Part shown: one piece after another, positions 347 to 63,702 of the stretch
Layout of the letters: every line of letters begins with the position of its first letter
How positions within the stretch are numbered: position 1 is the stretch's first letter
NCBI GenBank assembly: GCA_015231175.1
Contig: JADGBZ010000011.1
Coordinates: forward strand, 1 to 64,000
Reading direction: 5' to 3'
Source of the DNA: Magnetococcales bacterium
GTDB taxonomy: Bacteria > Pseudomonadota > Magnetococcia > Magnetococcales > DC0425bin3
Length of the DNA: 64,000 bases
Made by a program: the position numbers and the translations under genes
Notes under the pieces: model-generated
Databases searched by the model: none
Seen by the model: only the letters and a program-made list of their open reading frames with translations
What the model was told of the DNA's origin: nothing

Positions 347-468
347 GTAACTATTTAGCACCCTTACAAGAAAAGCTTGGATATAAAAGCCTTTGTCAGG
401 GCTTCGCCCCGAACCCCACCAGGAGGAAGGGCGCAGCCCTTCCTCCTGGATCTCCATCCCAGTTTTTC
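347..468 (+). repeat. GTAAC palindromic repeat, hairpin-core variant
   Basis: A forward copy starts with GTAACTATTTAGCACCC and continues through the AAAGCCTTTGTCAGGGCTTC block. Its core is a strong hairpin, GGAGGAAGGGC / GCCCTTCCTCC, at about 420-446. The right terminal repeat is not present. It lies just downstream of the stop codon of the minus-strand oxidoreductase operon (485) and could help end that transcript, but no U-tract follows the hairpin. Confidence 0.8.
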
Positions 469-484
469 AATGTACCGCCCCGGC

Positions 485-6015: not shown

Positions 6016-6216
6016 GTAACTATTGGTCACCCGACAATGCATCGGGGGCCAGGGGGCTGACCCCTGGCCGGTCCAAGGAAGAGTCCTGCAACGCATCGGG
6101 GTCAGGAGGCTGGCTCCTTGGCAGGCCCGGGAGAACCTCCTGGTGGAATTCGGGGTGAAACCCTGACAAAGGCTTTCATGTCCAGACTTTATCTTGAAAG
6201 GGTGCTGAATGGTTAC
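6016..6216 (-). repeat. GTAAC palindromic repeat, composite 201-bp copy
   Basis: Both ends are present: GTAACTATTGGTCACCC at the left and GGGTGCTGAATGGTTAC at the right. The core contains two successive CCAGGG...CCTGG palindromic blocks, so it looks like a composite or internally duplicated copy. The reverse-oriented block CCTGACAAAGGCTTTCATG lies near 6163-6181. It occupies the gap between the oxidoreductase operon promoter region and the ubiX stop codon. Confidence 0.8.
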
Positions 6217-6899: not shown

Positions 6900-7868
6900 A
6901 TGTCCGTTTACACCCCTTTGTGCCTCGCCGACATCCAACCCCTTCTGCGGGAGTATGCCATCGGTCGTCCATTGCAGATGGAGGGTATCAGCGATGGTGT
7001 GGATAACAGCAACTTTTTTCTTGTGACCGAGCGGGGGCGTTATGTCCTGACCCTGGTTGAGGATTCGCAACAGGCCAAAACCGTTGAACACACACTTCGT
7101 CTGATGGCCCATCTGGTCAAGCGTGCCATTCCCGCACCTCATCCCGTGGCGGATCGGCAAGGCCGGGTGTTGCACGCCTTGCGCGAACGACCCAGCCTGA
7201 TCGCAACCTGTCTGCCGGGCGCCCACGTGTTGCACCCGACGCCGGATCAGTGCCGACAGGTTGGTGAGCTGTTGGGCAGAATCCATCTCGCCGGGCAGGA
7301 TTTTACCCAACCACGACCCAACCCCATGGGTCAACCGGCCTGGCGGATGCTCATCGAGCGACTTGCCCCGGTTTTGGCACAAAACGACCCGCCCGCTGCA
7401 ACTCTGATCGCGGCAACAATGACCCGCCTGGAACTGGGATTTCTGCAAAGCGACCTCCCCTGTGGGGTGTGCCATGGGGATCTTTTTCCCGACAATGTTT
7501 TGTTCGCGGAGGGTTCCCTGGTGGGCGTCATCGATTTTCACTATGCATGCCGGGAGCGCTGGCTTTACGACCTGGCCATTGCCCTGGTCGCCTGGGGGTT
7601 TACTGCGGATGGCGTCTTTCTGCCCGATCATCATCAGGCCATCATAACGGGCTATCAGCGTGCGAGAAATTTGACTGCCGCCGAACTGTCCTGGAAAAAT
7701 GCGGCACTCTGCGCCGCCGCGCTCCGTTTCCTGTTGACCCGCCTGCGGGACTGGTATTTTCTGCGTCAAGGTCGGCAGGTCACCCGCAAATCCCCGGATC
7801 CATTCCTGCGGCGGCTGCACTTTTTTTCTGCCTTGCCGGACCCCGATGCGTGGCCGGGTGGTGAATAG
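6900..7868 (+). CDS. thrB: Homoserine kinase, ThrB aminoglycoside-phosphotransferase type
   Basis: This enzyme is predicted to phosphorylate homoserine with ATP in threonine synthesis. The N-terminus SVYTPLCLADIQPLL and the segment GISDGVDNSNFFL match the proteobacterial choline-kinase-like homoserine kinase family. The catalytic loop is VCHGDLFPDNVLF (about 205) and the metal-binding Asp is in GVIDFHYAC. The start at 6900 has AGGTG upstream; an in-frame ATG at 6831 would overlap ubiX. The last residues (PDPDAWPGGE) and the stop codon come from the terminal part of a GTAAC repeat (7838-7872), so the native C-terminus has been replaced or extended. Confidence 0.88.
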   Translation: MSVYTPLCLADIQPLLREYAIGRPLQMEGISDGVDNSNFFLVTERGRYVLTLVEDSQQAKTVEHTLRLMAHLVKRAIPAPHPVADRQGRVLHALRERPSLIATCLPGAHVLHPTPDQCRQVGELLGRIHLAGQDFTQPRPNPMGQPAWRMLIERLAPVLAQNDPPAATLIAATMTRLELGFLQSDLPCGVCHGDLFPDNVLFAEGSLVGVIDFHYACRERWLYDLAIALVAWGFTADGVFLPDHHQAIITGYQRARNLTAAELSWKNAALCAAALRFLLTRLRDWYFLRQGRQVTRKSPDPFLRRLHFFSALPDPDAWPGGE

Positions 7869-7872
7869 TGAC
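7838..7872 (+). repeat. Terminal fragment of GTAAC repeat at thrB 3' end
   Basis: The 35 bases match the right end of full copies at 13998 and 63556: GGACCCCGAT, then the terminal repeat GGGTGGTGAATAGTGAC. It overlaps the last codons of thrB and supplies its TGA stop. The left part of the element is not recognisable. Confidence 0.75.
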
Positions 7873-9720: not shown

Positions 9721-9845
9721 GCAACCATTCAGCACCCTTGCAAGGAAAGCTTTGACATGAAAGCCTTGGTCAGGGCTTCGCCCCGAACCCCACCACCAGG
9801 AAGGGCGCAGCCCTTCCTGGTGGACCTCCATCCCAGTCTTTCATT
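9721..9845 (+). repeat. GTAAC palindromic repeat, hairpin-core variant
   Basis: The copy starts GCAACCATTCAGCACCC, followed by the CTTTGACATGAAAGCC block and the hairpin core AGGAAGGGC / GCCCTTCCT at about 9799-9819. The right terminal repeat is missing. It sits in the 205-bp gap between ubiU and ubiV and places a stable hairpin in the putative operon. Confidence 0.8.
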
Positions 9846-11123: not shown

Positions 11124-11270
11124 GAACCCTGACCTCTGCCAGGGAGCTGGCTCCCTGGCAGGGCCTAAGACGGAGTCCTGGTGGGGTTCAGGGCGAAGCC
11201 CTGACAAAGGCTTTCATGTCCAGGCTTTTCTTGCAAGGGTGCTGAATAGTTACAGGCGCTGAACAGTTAC
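11124..11270 (-). repeat. GTAAC palindromic repeat with duplicated terminus
   Basis: The reverse-oriented copy contains CCAGGGAGCTGGCTCCCTGG (11138-11157), the TCAGGGCGAAGCCCTGACAA block, and ends with GGGTGCTGAATAGTTAC at 11237-11253. A second half-terminus, GGCGCTGAACAGTTAC, follows directly and ends at 11270. No clear left terminal repeat is seen. Confidence 0.8.
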
Positions 11271-13600: not shown

Positions 13601-13997
13601 AGGTCACTCTCCATCCTTGGAAATCAGACCGACAAAACGAGCGTGTCGGCCATCAGCCTACCGAATCGCCCCACATCCTGTGAGGAGGTCCGGCTCCTGC
13701 TGGAGTTAAGCAATTTTCTTGCCAGAAAAAAAATTGCTCCAAATTTATAAAAAAATCGCAACAATTCAACACCCTTGCAAAAAAGGTCGCAACGATCCGG
13801 TCTTGCCCTCATATTTTGGGATGCATCAAGCCTTCATGGCGGGTGCCGGCCTGTTGGCAGCTTTTGCCAAAATTTTGTCGCATGACCGTTCCTCCCCCGC
13901 TCATCATCCCAAGGCTCAGGGAACTCTTTCTTTTTAGGCTCGGGTCATGTATCTAGAACCGTTGGCAGGTGTCGGAATGGGTTGACCAAGACGATTT
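13601..13997. other. Gene-poor stretch between small gene and repeat copy
   Basis: No convincing gene is seen. The stretch holds an A/T-rich inverted repeat (AGCAATTTT / AAAATTGCT, about 13708-13737) upstream of the 68-residue gene, a degenerate half repeat at 13757-13791, and otherwise unremarkable sequence up to the complete repeat copy at 13998. Confidence 0.5.
13757..13791 (+). repeat. Degenerate left end of GTAAC repeat
   Basis: GCAACAATTCAACACCCTTG followed by CAAAAAAGG matches the left end of complete copies with a few changes. The rest of the element is missing. Confidence 0.6.
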
Positions 13998-14145
13998 GTA
14001 ACCATTCACCACCCTTGCAAGAAAAGCTTGGACATGAAAGCCTTTGTCAGGGCTTCGCCCCGAACCCCACCAGGGCGCTGCCCTGGACAAAGCCAGGGAG
14101 CCAGCCCCCTGGACCCCGATTCGTTGGCGGGTGGTGAATAGTTAC
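13998..14145 (+). mobile_element. Complete 148-bp MITE-like element with 8-bp target duplication
   Basis: The left end GTAACCATTCACCACCC and right end GGGTGGTGAATAGTTAC form 17-bp terminal inverted repeats with one mismatch. The interior has the AAAGCCTTTGTCAGGGCTTC block, a CCAGGGCGCTGCCCTGG palindrome and a GCCAGGGAGCCAGCCCCCTGG segment. The 8 bases GACGATTT occur immediately before (13990-13997) and after (14146-14153) the element, a perfect direct repeat as left by transposition. IS66-family elements are known for GTAA-starting ends and 8-bp duplications, so an IS66 transposase is the likely mobiliser. No coding capacity. Confidence 0.9.
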
Positions 14146-14175
14146 GACGATTTTTTTTTCAAAGAAGGATGAAAA

Positions 14176-14796
14176 ATGGCTTTATTTCATAAAAACAAGG
14201 AAGTGCAGCAAAAGATTGACGAACCCACTCCCGCACTCGCTGTTGACAAGCCCATCGTCGAAAAGCCAAGCGCAACGACCATCGCAGCCGGCACCAGGAT
14301 AAAAGGAGAGATTGCAACCCGATGCAATCTCCAGATGGATGGGGAGTTTGAGGGCCAGATTACCTCGGAAAGTCTCGTGATGGTCGGCAAGTCCGGTCGC
14401 ATCGAAGGACATGTCCACGCCAAAAAATTTGTTGTCTGCGGTCACTTCCATGGCCAGGCAGAGTGCGACGAGATCGAGATCCTGGCCGGTGGCAACGCTA
14501 CTGGTCAACTGCTCTCCTCAATCATGGTCATCGAACGCGGCAGCTTTTTTGAGGGGGAGAGTCGGCTCAGAGAATCAACATCCCGTGCGACGCCAGCCCA
14601 GCCACTCCCACCCGTGGCCACACCTGTCGAATCCGCTGCGGAGAACAGCCCCCCCGAACCCCTTCCCAGGGTCGCACCATCCTCACCCCCGCCCCAAGAA
14701 CGCAAGGGGACTGTCTACTCCAACACCGACCTCCTGAACGACCCCGCCCCACCCCCCTCGGCCACAAGGAAGATGCAACCCCCTGATCACGCATGA
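14176..14796 (+). CDS. Bactofilin (polymer-forming cytoskeletal protein)
   Basis: Bactofilins polymerise into filaments through a beta-helical core and act as scaffolds in cell shape, division or motility. The 206-residue protein has a short N-terminal tail, the core at about 30-140 (TTIAAGTRIKGEIATRCNLQ, then IEGHVHAKKFVVCGHFHGQA), and a long Pro/Ser-rich disordered tail. AAGGATGAAAA precedes the ATG. A fresh repeat insertion lies 30 bp upstream, so its promoter may be inside or beyond the repeat. The neighbouring genes on the other strand are chemosensory, which may point to a polar scaffold role (inference). Confidence 0.9.
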   Translation: MALFHKNKEVQQKIDEPTPALAVDKPIVEKPSATTIAAGTRIKGEIATRCNLQMDGEFEGQITSESLVMVGKSGRIEGHVHAKKFVVCGHFHGQAECDEIEILAGGNATGQLLSSIMVIERGSFFEGESRLRESTSRATPAQPLPPVATPVESAAENSPPEPLPRVAPSSPPPQERKGTVYSNTDLLNDPAPPPSATRKMQPPDHA

Positions 14797-16075: not shown

Positions 16076-16200
16076 GTAACTATTCACCACCCTCTCAAGA
16101 AAAGCCTGGATATAAAAGCCTTTATCAGGGCTTTTCCCCGAACCCCACCAAGACTCTATCCTGGTCCCGCCAGGGAGCCAGCCCACTGGAGCCCGACTGG
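16076..16200 (+). repeat. GTAAC repeat overlapping dtd 3' end
   Basis: The forward copy begins GTAACTATTCACCACCC and continues to the GCCAGGGAGCCAGCC core, then merges into the dtd coding sequence near 16200. The right terminal repeat is missing. The dtd stop codon (16156-16158) lies inside the element. Confidence 0.8.
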
Positions 16201-29706: not shown

Positions 29707-30135
29707 ATGCCAGCCAAGAACACACTCAAGGCCATTCCGATCATCGATGCCCATTCCGCTCAGCGGGTCGGGGGCTTTTGCGCCTCCCTTGATGCCGTCA
29801 CAACCGCCGAGTTGAGCGCCCTGCACCACCTGCGGGCATTGCACTCTGAAGCCGATGTCATCAAATCGCGCCTGGCCGCCACCCCGGATCCGGCAGCCCG
29901 GGAGGCGATGCAACAGCGGCTGATCACCCTGCGTCAGGATGCCGCGCATTGGCGCCAGATCCGTGAACAGGCCACTCAGGAAAAACATGTCGCTCTGGGC
30001 CATGCAACCCTGCCTGCCCTGCCGATCCTGGAACCTCATCCAAAACGTAACTATTCACCACCCTTGCAAGAAAAGCTTGGACATGAAAGCCTTTGTCAGG
30101 GCTTCGCCCCGAACCCCACCAGGACACCGTCTTAG
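29707..30135 (+). CDS. Unknown protein with repeat-derived C-terminus
   Basis: The 142-residue product begins 1 bp after the ppiD stop, which suggests coupling. Residues 1-110 are largely helical and rich in Ala, Arg and Gln (AELSALHHLRALHSEADVIK), with no recognised domain. About the last 30 residues (from RNYSPPLQEK) are translated from a GTAAC repeat inserted at 30047, so the native C-terminus is lost or extended. It may be a broken gene. Confidence 0.55.
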   Translation: MPAKNTLKAIPIIDAHSAQRVGGFCASLDAVTTAELSALHHLRALHSEADVIKSRLAATPDPAAREAMQQRLITLRQDAAHWRQIREQATQEKHVALGHATLPALPILEPHPKRNYSPPLQEKLGHESLCQGFAPNPTRTPS

Positions 30136-30194
30136 GCCCTGCCAGGGAGCCAGCCTCCTGGACCCCGATTCGTTGCCGGGTACTGAATGGTTAC
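30047..30194 (+). repeat. Complete 148-bp GTAAC repeat, plus extra half-terminus
   Basis: It has the left end GTAACTATTCACCACCC and right end GGGTACTGAATGGTTAC, with the standard interior. No flanking 8-bp duplication is seen (TCCAAAAC against GCTTTGCC). A further half-terminus, GGTCTCTGAACAGTTAC, lies 30 bp downstream at 30225-30241, directly before the methyltransferase gene. Confidence 0.85.
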
Positions 30195-30257
30195 GCTTTG
30201 CCCATTCCGATAGTGGCTTGAGATGGGGTCTCTGAACAGTTACAAAAAGGGAATGTC

Positions 30258-45490: not shown

Positions 45491-46635
45491 ACCAGGCGGC
45501 GTCCCCCGTCCACGTGCAAAATCTCCCCAGTCACGAATGGGGCGTCCAGCAGATACCGAACTGCCCGCAGGATCGCCTCCGGGTGGGCGTGGGATGCCAG
45601 GGGGGTGTGTTGCAACATGACCTGAAACGGCGCGGCATCGTCCGGGGAGTCAGGGGGTAAGACGCCCCCTGGGGCAATGGCGTTGACACGGATCTTGTCT
45701 GGAGCCAGATCACGCGCCAGAACTTGTGTCATCATGATCACCCCCGCCTTGGCCGCACAGTAGGCCGCATGCCCGGCCAGAGGACGTTCCCCCCACACGT
45801 CAGCCAGGTTGATGATCGAACCACCGCCATGCCGGCGCATTCTTTCTGCGGCTTTCAGCGAAAGCCAAAGGGGGCCTTGCAGATTGCCCTTGAAAACGGC
45901 ATCCATGGCCTCCCAGGTTCCCGCCTCGCTCTGCGTGGGAGCAAATACGCCCGCATTGTTGACCAGAAGGCGCAGAGGCCCCAAACTCCGTTCCACCTCG
46001 TGGACCAGAGTGGCGATCCGGGCGGGGTTGGTCAAATCCATGGAAAGGGCTTCGGCCCTGCCTCCCTGGTCACGAAGGCTTTTGGCCAAGCGCCTGGCGG
46101 CTGGTTCGGATTGGTGATAAACCACCGCCACGGCAAAACCGATACGAGACAACTCCCGACACAGAACAGCCCCCAAACGCCGCCCCCCGCCCGTGACCAG
46201 GGCCACACCCCCACAATCCGCATGCCCCCCACCATGCATCCGGGGAGCGCACCTGACTGCCTCGCCTGAATCATTCAGGGGCTCGGGAGCGCATTGCAAA
46301 TCCCTGTCGTCCATGTGCGGGGGTTCGGGGGCGCTTTGCAGATTCCTCTCCTCCCCGCACAAGGGCTCGGGAGCGCTTTTCAGCTCCTTGCCGTCCATGT
46401 ACAGGATGGAAATCGAGTCGCGGGCCTGCAACAGCTTTTTCAAGTATACCCAGGGGGCGTCTGGCGCTGGCCGACCGGCGCGCAGCTCGGACCATCGGTG
46501 GAGATACCAGGTGGGCACCAAAATGATCAGAAGCGGAAAACCGAAAAACGCGCCGAGAGCGACCTGCAACCCGGTCAGAAATTTTTTTCCCGTACCACCC
46601 ATGGGTGATGCCTGAAAGCTCACGCTGGTTGTCAT
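45487..46635 (-). CDS. Membrane-anchored SDR oxidoreductase (pteridine-reductase-like) with 14-residue tandem repeats
   Basis: Residues 142-382 form a short-chain dehydrogenase: TGGGRRLG for NADP binding, NNAG, the catalytic Ser replaced by Ala in the INLADVWG segment, and Tyr-x-x-x-Lys in YCAAK. The segment order and arginine after the glycine motif resemble FolM/pteridine reductases. In front lies an unusual extension: one transmembrane helix (about 22-44), a basic linker, then three full 14-residue repeats (84-125; core SAPEP) and a partial fourth. The start could be 46635 or 46602. The fusion is unlike the usual 240-residue family and may be lineage-specific. Confidence 0.75.
   Translation of the reverse strand: MTTSVSFQASPMGGTGKKFLTGLQVALGAFFGFPLLIILVPTWYLHRWSELRAGRPAPDAPWVYLKKLLQARDSISILYMDGKELKSAPEPLCGEERNLQSAPEPPHMDDRDLQCAPEPLNDSGEAVRCAPRMHGGGHADCGGVALVTGGGRRLGAVLCRELSRIGFAVAVVYHQSEPAARRLAKSLRDQGGRAEALSMDLTNPARIATLVHEVERSLGPLRLLVNNAGVFAPTQSEAGTWEAMDAVFKGNLQGPLWLSLKAAERMRRHGGGSIINLADVWGERPLAGHAAYCAAKAGVIMMTQVLARDLAPDKIRVNAIAPGGVLPPDSPDDAAPFQVMLQHTPLASHAHPEAILRAVRYLLDAPFVTGEILHVDGGRRLV
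46243..46386 (-). repeat. 42-bp in-frame tandem repeat (minisatellite) in SDR gene
   Basis: Three full units of 42 bp and a partial fourth encode 14-residue repeats (ELKSAPEPLCGEER, NLQSAPEPPHMDDR, DLQCAPEPLNDSGE, then AVRCAP). The DNA units keep the GGCTCGGGAGCGC/GTTCGGGGGCGC core. The unit length keeps the reading frame, so copy number can vary without breaking the protein. Confidence 0.85.
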
Positions 46636-46688: not shown

Positions 46689-46747
46689 GTGACTATTCGG
46701 TACCAGCCCCCTGGACCCCGATGCGTTGCCGGATGGTGAATAGTTTC
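46689..46747 (+). mobile_element. 59-bp internally deleted GTAAC element with 8-bp target duplication
   Basis: The left end GTGACTATTCGGTACC is joined directly to the right-hand segment AGCCCCCTGGACCCCGATGC and the terminal repeat GGATGGTGAATAGTTTC. The 8 bases GGCAAGAA flank it on both sides (46681-46688 and 46748-46755) as a perfect direct repeat. This shows that a copy lacking the whole left interior was still inserted, or was deleted after insertion. Confidence 0.88.
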
Positions 46748-63391: not shown

Positions 63392-63559
63392 GGCTTTTTT
63401 TTGTGGCAATATCCCCGCCGGGTACGGTTCACCTTGGCCAATCGTGTCGATACCCTGGCCCTGGATGTGGTGGAAGATTTGGTGAAAGCCCGCTACACTC
63501 GGGACAGACTGGATCTCCCCAGACGAACCGATCTGCGCTATTTTATTAAATTTCGGTAA
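63392..63559 (+). pseudogene. Avd-like (DGR accessory, four-helix-bundle) gene fragment
   Basis: The frame encodes PRRVRFTLANRVDTLALDVV, then EDLVKARYTRDRL, a pattern matching the second helix and loop of the bAvd family, the accessory variability proteins of diversity-generating retroelements and related 23S-intervening-sequence proteins. The first helix is missing, the frame is cut upstream by a TAG at 63389, and the stop TAA comes from the GTAAC repeat that starts at 63556. No reverse transcriptase or template repeat is seen in the window. Confidence 0.6.
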
Positions 63560-63702
63560 CTATTCACCACCCTTTCAAGGAAAGCTTGGACATGAAAGCC
63601 TTTGTCAGGGCTTCGCCCCGAACCCCACCAGGGCTCTGCCCTGGCCCCGCCAGGGAGCCAGCCCCCTGGATCCCGATTCGTTGGCGGGTGGTGAATAGTT
63701 AC
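63556..63702 (+). mobile_element. Complete 147-bp GTAAC palindromic element
   Basis: GTAACTATTCACCACCC and GGGTGGTGAATAGTTAC are perfect 17-bp inverted ends. The interior has CCAGGGCTCTGCCCTGG and GCCAGGGAGCCAGCCCCCTGG. No matching 8-bp flank is present (AAATTTCG against CGGGCATC), so it is older or has recombined. It truncates the Avd-like fragment. Confidence 0.9.

What the first reader, a model, noticed from the sequence alone, without database searches (positions are those of the whole stretch)
13990..14153. Complete MITE-like element with perfect 8-bp target duplication
The sequence shows a 148-bp palindrome-ended element, flanked on both sides by GACGATTT. This is direct evidence of insertion. 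IS66-family elements are established to have GTAA-starting ends and 8-bp duplications, so the element may be an IS66-derived MITE. The family, with the CTGACAAAGGC/TTTCATG block and CCAGGG-core, is conserved over sixteen or so sites in 64 kb.
Basis: partly seen in the sequence, partly recalled or inferred. Interest (0 to 1): 0.8.

Follow-up and report, generated by a model that had tools for sequence, protein, structure and literature searches.

The report
IS66-type MITE with captured hairpin core
This is a 148-base jumping fragment with no genes of its own, with the ends of a known kind of bacterial transposon (IS66, ISBst12 group), spread over a hundred times in this genome around a hairpin repeat that relatives also carry without those ends; it is a solid, moderately unusual example of a known kind of mobile element.

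Summary
Window 13998-14145 is a 148-bp element with 17-bp terminal inverted repeats (TIRs, one mismatch), flanked by a perfect 8-bp duplication, GACGATTT. It is one of a large family: 228 ends with at most 1 mismatch in the genome (0 for the control pattern). Of 51 copies checked, 22 carry a perfect 8-bp duplication and 6 more a 7/8 match, against 2/2550 in mismatched pairings. One copy sits inside another with its own duplication, giving an exact empty site.

The IS66 guess is right and can be sharpened. Relatives in the same order carry intact 1.7-kb, single-ORF IS66 elements of ISBst12 type ending in GTAACTATTCA[C/G]CACCC with 8-bp duplications, and the host keeps a broken copy. ISBst12-type elements in other phyla share related GTAAC- ends.

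The core (three GC hairpins) is a separate repeat found across the order without these ends, and in one congener inside a different TIR shell, so the element is modular. Rumen Clostridia carry unrelated ~164-bp elements with the same 17-bp ends, 8-bp duplications and a covarying three-stem fold. Best filed as a new IS66/ISBst12 MITE family. Hairpin function is untested.

The parts
13998..14145 (+). Complete 148-bp MITE
   Evidence: sequence; 42 copies at 88-97% identity over most of the element in the own genome; family length 147/148 bp
13990..13997 (.). Left copy of the 8-bp target duplication GACGATTT
   Evidence: perfect 8-bp duplications at 22 of 51 copies, 2/2550 in cross-pairing control
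14146..14153 (.). Right copy of the 8-bp target duplication GACGATTT
13998..14014 (+). Left terminal inverted repeat GTAACCATTCACCACCC (1 mismatch to the right one)
   Evidence: same ends as intact ISBst12-type IS66 elements in relatives
14129..14145 (-). Right terminal inverted repeat GTAACTATTCACCACCC (read on - strand)
14015..14037 (+). Left subterminal stretch (TTGCAAGAAAAGCTTGGACATGA), weakly similar to the transposase-gene-side end of the IS66 elements (AAGAAAAATCCTTGACA)
   Evidence: Local alignment of the family consensus, p 0.005-0.02 against shuffles for five IS left ends; no similarity for right ends
14050..14060 (+). Core hairpin A, GGGC-TTC-GCCC
   Evidence: 99% of cells paired across 37 copies; core shared without TIRs in other genomes of the order
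14070..14086 (+). Core hairpin B, CCAGGG-CGCTG-CCCTGG; one pair is G-C in 18 copies and A-U in 17
14093..14112 (+). Core hairpin C, CCAGGG-AGCCAGCC-CCCTGG
63556..63702 (+). Second full-length copy (147 bp), perfect TIRs, no target duplication left
30047..30194 (+). Third full-length copy (148 bp), no duplication
6016..6216 (-). Diverged 201-bp copy with both ends (5 mismatches in all) and an extra hairpin unit
16076..16195 (+). Partial copy, left end and core, right end lost
11139..11253 (-). Partial copy, left end and core
   Evidence: absent at the orthologous place in G002
347..470 (+). Partial copy of a variant with a longer hairpin B and no matching right end
9721..9844 (+). Partial copy of the same variant; absent at the orthologous place in G002
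7838..7872 (-). Right-end fragment
46713..46747 (-). Right-end fragment
14176..14796 (+). Bactofilin gene whose start codon lies 30 bp downstream of the element
   Evidence: Pfam PF04519, E 1.9e-21

Best explanation
The element is a miniature inverted-repeat transposable element of the IS66 family, ISBst12 (single-ORF) group. It codes for nothing. Its 17-bp ends are those of ISBst12-type elements, whose transposase (TnpC, PF03050) most likely binds them, inserts the DNA at a staggered cut and leaves an 8-bp duplication. Shown here: matching ends on intact transposase elements in the same order, the 8-bp duplications, nested insertion, and identical copies at different sites (recent spread). 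Inferred: that this transposase is the one that acted and that a helper was present; the assembled host genome holds only a broken copy of this TnpC next to a scaffold gap. The inside of the element does not look like a deleted IS: it is an intergenic triple-hairpin repeat of this order of bacteria that became enclosed between two IS66 ends and was then copied as a unit (inferred from its separate occurrence). At this site it lies just upstream of a bactofilin gene, between a block conserved in a congener and the start codon, so its hairpins probably end up in that gene's 5' leader (inferred).
For: TIRs and duplication. 228 ends in the genome against 0 control. 22/51 perfect and 6/51 near-perfect 8-bp duplications against 2/2550. 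Identical copies at unrelated sites. Nested insertion L067:1371-1517 with its own duplication GCTTTTGT, whose removal restores the family sequence. Intact 1.7-kb single-ORF IS66 elements with the same ends: G016 and G008 with perfect 8-bp duplications, G037 with 7/8. The G016 and G008 ORFs hit DDE_Tnp_IS66 and NCBIfam transpos_IS66 above cut-off. Host remnant at G000:C17:36886 with exact TIR and 70% identical TnpC start. Annotated ISGst1 of Geobacillus and elements of Deinococcus, Planococcus, Anoxybacillus and Bradyrhizobium share related GTAAC- ends with perfect 8-bp duplications. A published active ISBst12-group element has a GTAACTGCTCAGCA end and an 8-bp repeat (PMC12898284). The core occurs without these TIRs in many genomes of the order and in other contexts in congeners.
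Against: No intact TnpC of this type is in the assembled host genome, so the helper is missing or unassembled. 23 of 51 copies match at fewer than 7 of 8 positions, including two of the three full-length copies in the window; decay and recombination between copies can explain this but were not tested. Only the left subterminal region resembles the IS, weakly. An intact but different IS66 (L121:3297-4995, ends GTA..CGTTCAGAGACCCC) sits in the host and could have acted instead.
Confidence: 0.9

Rival explanations
1. The element is a REP/BIME-type palindromic repeat spread by a RAYT (Y1) transposase or by recombination, and the 8-bp repeat is incidental.
For: The core is a GC-rich hairpin repeat like a REP and is found without TIRs across the order.
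Against: 8-bp duplications at 22/51 copies against 2/2550 in the control; Y1/REP systems do not duplicate the target (established knowledge). The single Y1_Tnp match in the host is weak and partial (E 1.4e-9, 40-119 of 121) and the congeners G001 and G002 have none.
Confidence: 0.04
2. The MITE is mobilised in the host by the other, intact IS66 element (L121:3297-4995) rather than by an ISBst12 element with identical ends.
For: That element has an intact ORF in the host, a 7/8 target duplication, and its ends share GTA.. and TTCA with the MITE.
Against: Its ends differ after about position 11 (GAGACCCC against CCACCC), while matching-end elements exist in several relatives and as a remnant in the host.
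Confidence: 0.1
3. The element is a simple internal-deletion derivative of one ISBst12-type element.
For: Both ends match, and the left subterminal stretch is weakly similar to the IS left end.
Against: About 75 of 148 bp is the order-wide hairpin core, which is not seen at the ends of the IS elements listed and occurs without these TIRs elsewhere.
Confidence: 0.12

Closest known systems
ISBst12 group of the IS66 family (ISBst12, ISGst1, ISDge4)
   Same: Ends related to GTAACT..[TC]CAG, 8-bp target duplication, single-ORF TnpC in the partner elements.
   Different: The element here has no transposase gene and is 147-148 bp instead of about 1.5-1.7 kb.
Bacterial MITEs in general (Correia, QMITE, Chunjie, MITEPsy1)
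   Same: Short, non-coding, TIR-bounded, target-duplicating, high copy number, strong fold (review PMC10969869).
   Different: GC-rich core; the core is a separate order-wide repeat. IS66 is not mentioned in that review.
REP/BIME intergenic hairpin repeats
   Same: The core is a run of three GC-rich hairpins and also occurs alone between genes.
   Different: The full element has TIRs and an 8-bp duplication, which REPs lack.
The ~164-bp elements of rumen Lachnospiraceae found here
   Same: Identical 17-bp ends (imposed by the search), perfect 8-bp duplication in 24 of 31, three internal stems in most.
   Different: Unrelated internal sequence and much longer stems; their transposase partner was not found.

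Membership tests
MITE (non-autonomous DDE-type miniature element) | Short, no coding capacity for a transposase | tested here: met
   148 bp
MITE (non-autonomous DDE-type miniature element) | Terminal inverted repeats at both ends | tested here: met
   17 bp, 1 mismatch; 91.5% of TIR cells paired over 37 copies
MITE (non-autonomous DDE-type miniature element) | Fixed-length target duplication | tested here: met
   8 bp; 22/51 perfect against 2/2550
MITE (non-autonomous DDE-type miniature element) | Many copies, and an autonomous element with matching ends exists | tested here: met
MITE (non-autonomous DDE-type miniature element) | Actual mobilisation by the partner transposase | not testable with these tools
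   Needs an assay; indirect support from identical copies at different sites
IS66 family, ISBst12 group (as parent) | Ends starting GTAA | tested here: met
IS66 family, ISBst12 group (as parent) | 8-bp target duplication | tested here: met
   partner elements
IS66 family, ISBst12 group (as parent) | Partner elements encode only TnpC (PF03050), without tnpA/tnpB | tested here: met
   G016 and G008 elements of 1.72-1.74 kb are nearly filled by one ORF of 530-535 aa
IS66 family, ISBst12 group (as parent) | An intact partner in the same genome (expected, not strictly defining) | tested here: inconclusive
   Only a broken TnpC start next to an N gap in the assembled genome; the assembly has 175 contigs, so the absence is not final
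REP/BIME with RAYT | No target duplication | tested here: not met
   8-bp duplication present
REP/BIME with RAYT | RAYT (Y1) gene in the genome | tested here: inconclusive
   One weak, partial Y1 match in the host, none in the congeners

The most novel reading that the evidence does not exclude
Miniature elements with ISBst12-type ends form a class found in distant phyla (Magnetococcales and rumen Clostridia) whose internal stem-loops are kept by selection and take part in the element's life cycle, for example as a structured DNA or RNA that helps transposition. In the Clostridial family the three stems covary (28 pairs changed on both sides, at most 13 in slid controls). In the Magnetococcales a ready-made hairpin repeat was captured to fill the same role.
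Probability: 0.12. Interest if true: 0.7.

Novelty: new member of a known kind. Interest (0 to 1): 0.42.

Why it matters
IS66-derived MITEs seem little described (IS66 is absent from a 2024 review of prokaryotic MITEs, and the literature searches here found no case, though the main IS66 survey could not be read). This family gives a clear set of filled sites, end sequences and partner transposases for testing how ISBst12-type transposases act on minimal ends. It also suggests how an ordinary intergenic hairpin repeat can become mobile by being enclosed between transposon ends. The Clostridial elements with identical ends and covarying stems raise the testable question of whether the hairpins matter for transposition.

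Tried and rejected
Rfam: no match in the window or in representative related loci. The element is not in phage or plasmid records or viral contigs. The coding-disruption test for empty sites found insertions between genes or at gene ends, so no clean interrupted gene was available. Congeners G001-G003 are too diverged between genes for base-precise empty sites at the window copy. Fold energy: the strong z-scores of the whole window element (-6.0 and -6.8) come mostly from the TIRs; the region inside the TIRs alone gives only -1.5 to -1.9, so a structured-RNA claim for this copy rests on the conserved hairpins and one covarying pair, not on energy. The IS66 genes in the Oribacterium genome do not lie between GTAACTATTCAGCACCC ends. 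The main survey of IS66 (Route 66, 2010) is not held, so prior mention of IS66 MITEs there could not be checked.

Full report
Observation. Window 13990-14153 reads GACGATTT, a 148-bp element, then GACGATTT. The element starts GTAACCATTCACCACCC and ends GGGTGGTGAATAGTTAC, so the two 17-bp ends are inverted repeats with one mismatch. In the window the end sequence occurs 17 times with up to 3 mismatches, 0.08 expected. In the whole 3.81-Mb genome it occurs 228 times with at most 1 mismatch, against none for the reversed control pattern. A DNA search with the element lists 52 matching stretches, with 40 scored of 689 first-look candidates, so the true number is probably higher.

Insertion signature. 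51 distinct TIR-bounded stretches from the own genome were examined. Lengths cluster at 147 and 148 bp. 22 have a perfect 8-bp match between left and right flank, 6 have 7 of 8. Pairing each left flank with the right flanks of other copies gives 2 perfect matches in 2550. The match length is 8 bp: only one copy matches at 6 or 7, none at 9 or 10. Two pairs of copies are identical although they lie at different sites, which points to recent movement.

Empty sites. In L067 a complete copy (1371-1517) sits inside another copy and is flanked by GCTTTTGT; dropping it and one repeat restores the uninterrupted family sequence ...ATGAAGGCTTTTGTCAGGGCTTCGC.... For L022:1501 a homologous stretch in congener G002 (L238) runs uninterrupted through the insertion point...GAACTGCGAAAGTTGAG...; only about six bases to the right of the junction are alignable. 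The G002 positions orthologous to the window copies at 13998, 11139 and 9721 lack the element, but the sequence between genes is too diverged for base precision. The position of the partial copy at 16076 also lacks a recognisable element in G002.

Transposase. IS66 DDE genes (PF03050) were sought in the genome and 20 relatives. The elements in G016 (L126:2743-4482, 1740 bp) and G008 (L125:3468-5189, 1722 bp) end in GTAACTATTCACCACC[C/T] and GTAACTATTCAGCACCC and have perfect 8-bp duplications. G037 has a 1737-bp element with the same ends and a 7/8 duplication. Partial copies in G003, G004, G023, G034 and G039 lie next to the same kind of end. The G016 and G008 elements have a single ORF of about 530 aa matching DDE_Tnp_IS66 and NCBIfam transpos_IS66, which is the layout of the ISBst12 group. 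The host has the first part of such an element, with an exact TIR at G000:C17:36886 and a 70% identical TnpC start, running into a scaffold gap. No intact copy is assembled. Single-ORF IS66 elements on plasmids of Geobacillus (annotated ISGst1), Deinococcus, Planococcus, Anoxybacillus and Bradyrhizobium have related GTAAC- ends and perfect 8-bp duplications, and an active ISBst12-group element, ISDge4, has ends GTGACTACTCAGCA/GTAACTGCTCAGCA and an 8-bp repeat (PMC12898284).

Core. The inside holds three GC hairpins: GGGCTTCGCCC, CCAGGGCGCTGCCCTGG and CCAGGGAGCCAGCCCCCTGG. Over 37 copies these are 98-99% paired; most pairs hardly vary, and one pair is G-C in 18 copies and A-U in 17. Related hairpin runs occur in many genomes of the order without these ends. 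In congener G001 the core lies in another surrounding sequence. In congener G002 it also lies inside a second shell, about 157-168 bp, with ends GGCCTTGATCATCGTTTCGGCCAT and an 8-bp duplication (perfect in L201, 7/8 in L202). So the element looks modular: IS66-type ends plus a resident intergenic hairpin repeat. The left subterminal stretch is weakly similar to the transposase-gene-side end of the IS elements (p 0.005-0.02), the right one is not.

Same ends in another phylum. A scan of 85,462 species genomes for the two exact 17-bp ends 100-130 bases apart found 30 stretches, all in Clostridia, mainly one Oribacterium MAG and other Lachnospiraceae (the window's own genome and near relatives may be left out of that collection). 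Of 31 elements, most are 164 bp and 24 have a perfect 8-bp duplication. The identity of the ends is imposed by the search, but their duplications and shared length are not. Their inner sequence is unrelated to the core here and in most folds into three stems. On 14 sequences 28 pairs show changes on both sides (79 cells), against at most 13 pairs and 21 cells in slid controls. Two sequences (L255, L257) have other interiors. The only IS66 genes found in those genomes do not have these ends, so the partner there is unknown. Three stems in both lineages may be coincidence: stem lengths differ greatly.

Setting. The element lies 30 bp upstream of the start codon of a bactofilin gene (PF04519). 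The upstream block CTCTTTCTTTTT...GTCATGTATC is conserved in G002, so the element probably lies in the 5' leader of that gene; whether it changes expression is unknown.

Host. The order is probably Magnetococcales: one relative of the same order is a single 4,719,581-base contig, which from memory is the size of Magnetococcus marinus MC-1.

Verdict. A real IS66/ISBst12-type MITE family with high copy number, recent activity and a captured hairpin core. It meets the tested features of a MITE; what is missing is an intact helper in the assembled genome and a transposition assay. Novelty is that of a new family with an unusual modular make-up; the cross-phylum structured elements are the most interesting loose end.

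Noticed in passing
L249-L278 (Clostridia, e.g. L249:411-574): ~164-bp elements with the same 17-bp ends and 8-bp duplications but an unrelated, strongly covarying three-stem interior, many identical copies in one Oribacterium MAG; no transposase partner found.
   Followed up: partly
L201:162-329, L202:158-314 (G002): The same hairpin core inside a different TIR shell (GGCCTTGATCATCGTTTCGGCCAT) with an 8-bp duplication, perfect in L201 and 7/8 in L202.
   Followed up: partly
L214, L217, L219, L223, L228 (own genome): A variant of the element with a different right flank ending ...CACATCAAATCAACACGGTTGAGCCACTAG, perhaps another composite shell around the core.
   Followed up: no
window 30225-30243: GGGGTCTCTGAACAGTTAC next to the copy at 30047-30194: it resembles the end of the other IS66 group (GTAACCGTTCAGAGACCCC) seen as an intact element at L121:3297-4995.
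   Followed up: partly
L032:1501-1646 (G039): A 97% identical copy of the element in a genome of another family of the order, which also has a partial TnpC; suggests horizontal transfer or contamination.
   Followed up: no
L171:1330-1400 (G000:C17): The host's copy of the ISBst12-type transposase gene breaks off into sel1-repeat-like sequence beside a run of ten N; looks like a truncated copy or a scaffolding error.
   Followed up: partly
window 46276-46405: Three copies of a repeat spaced 42 bp apart, at 70-80% identity.
   Followed up: no
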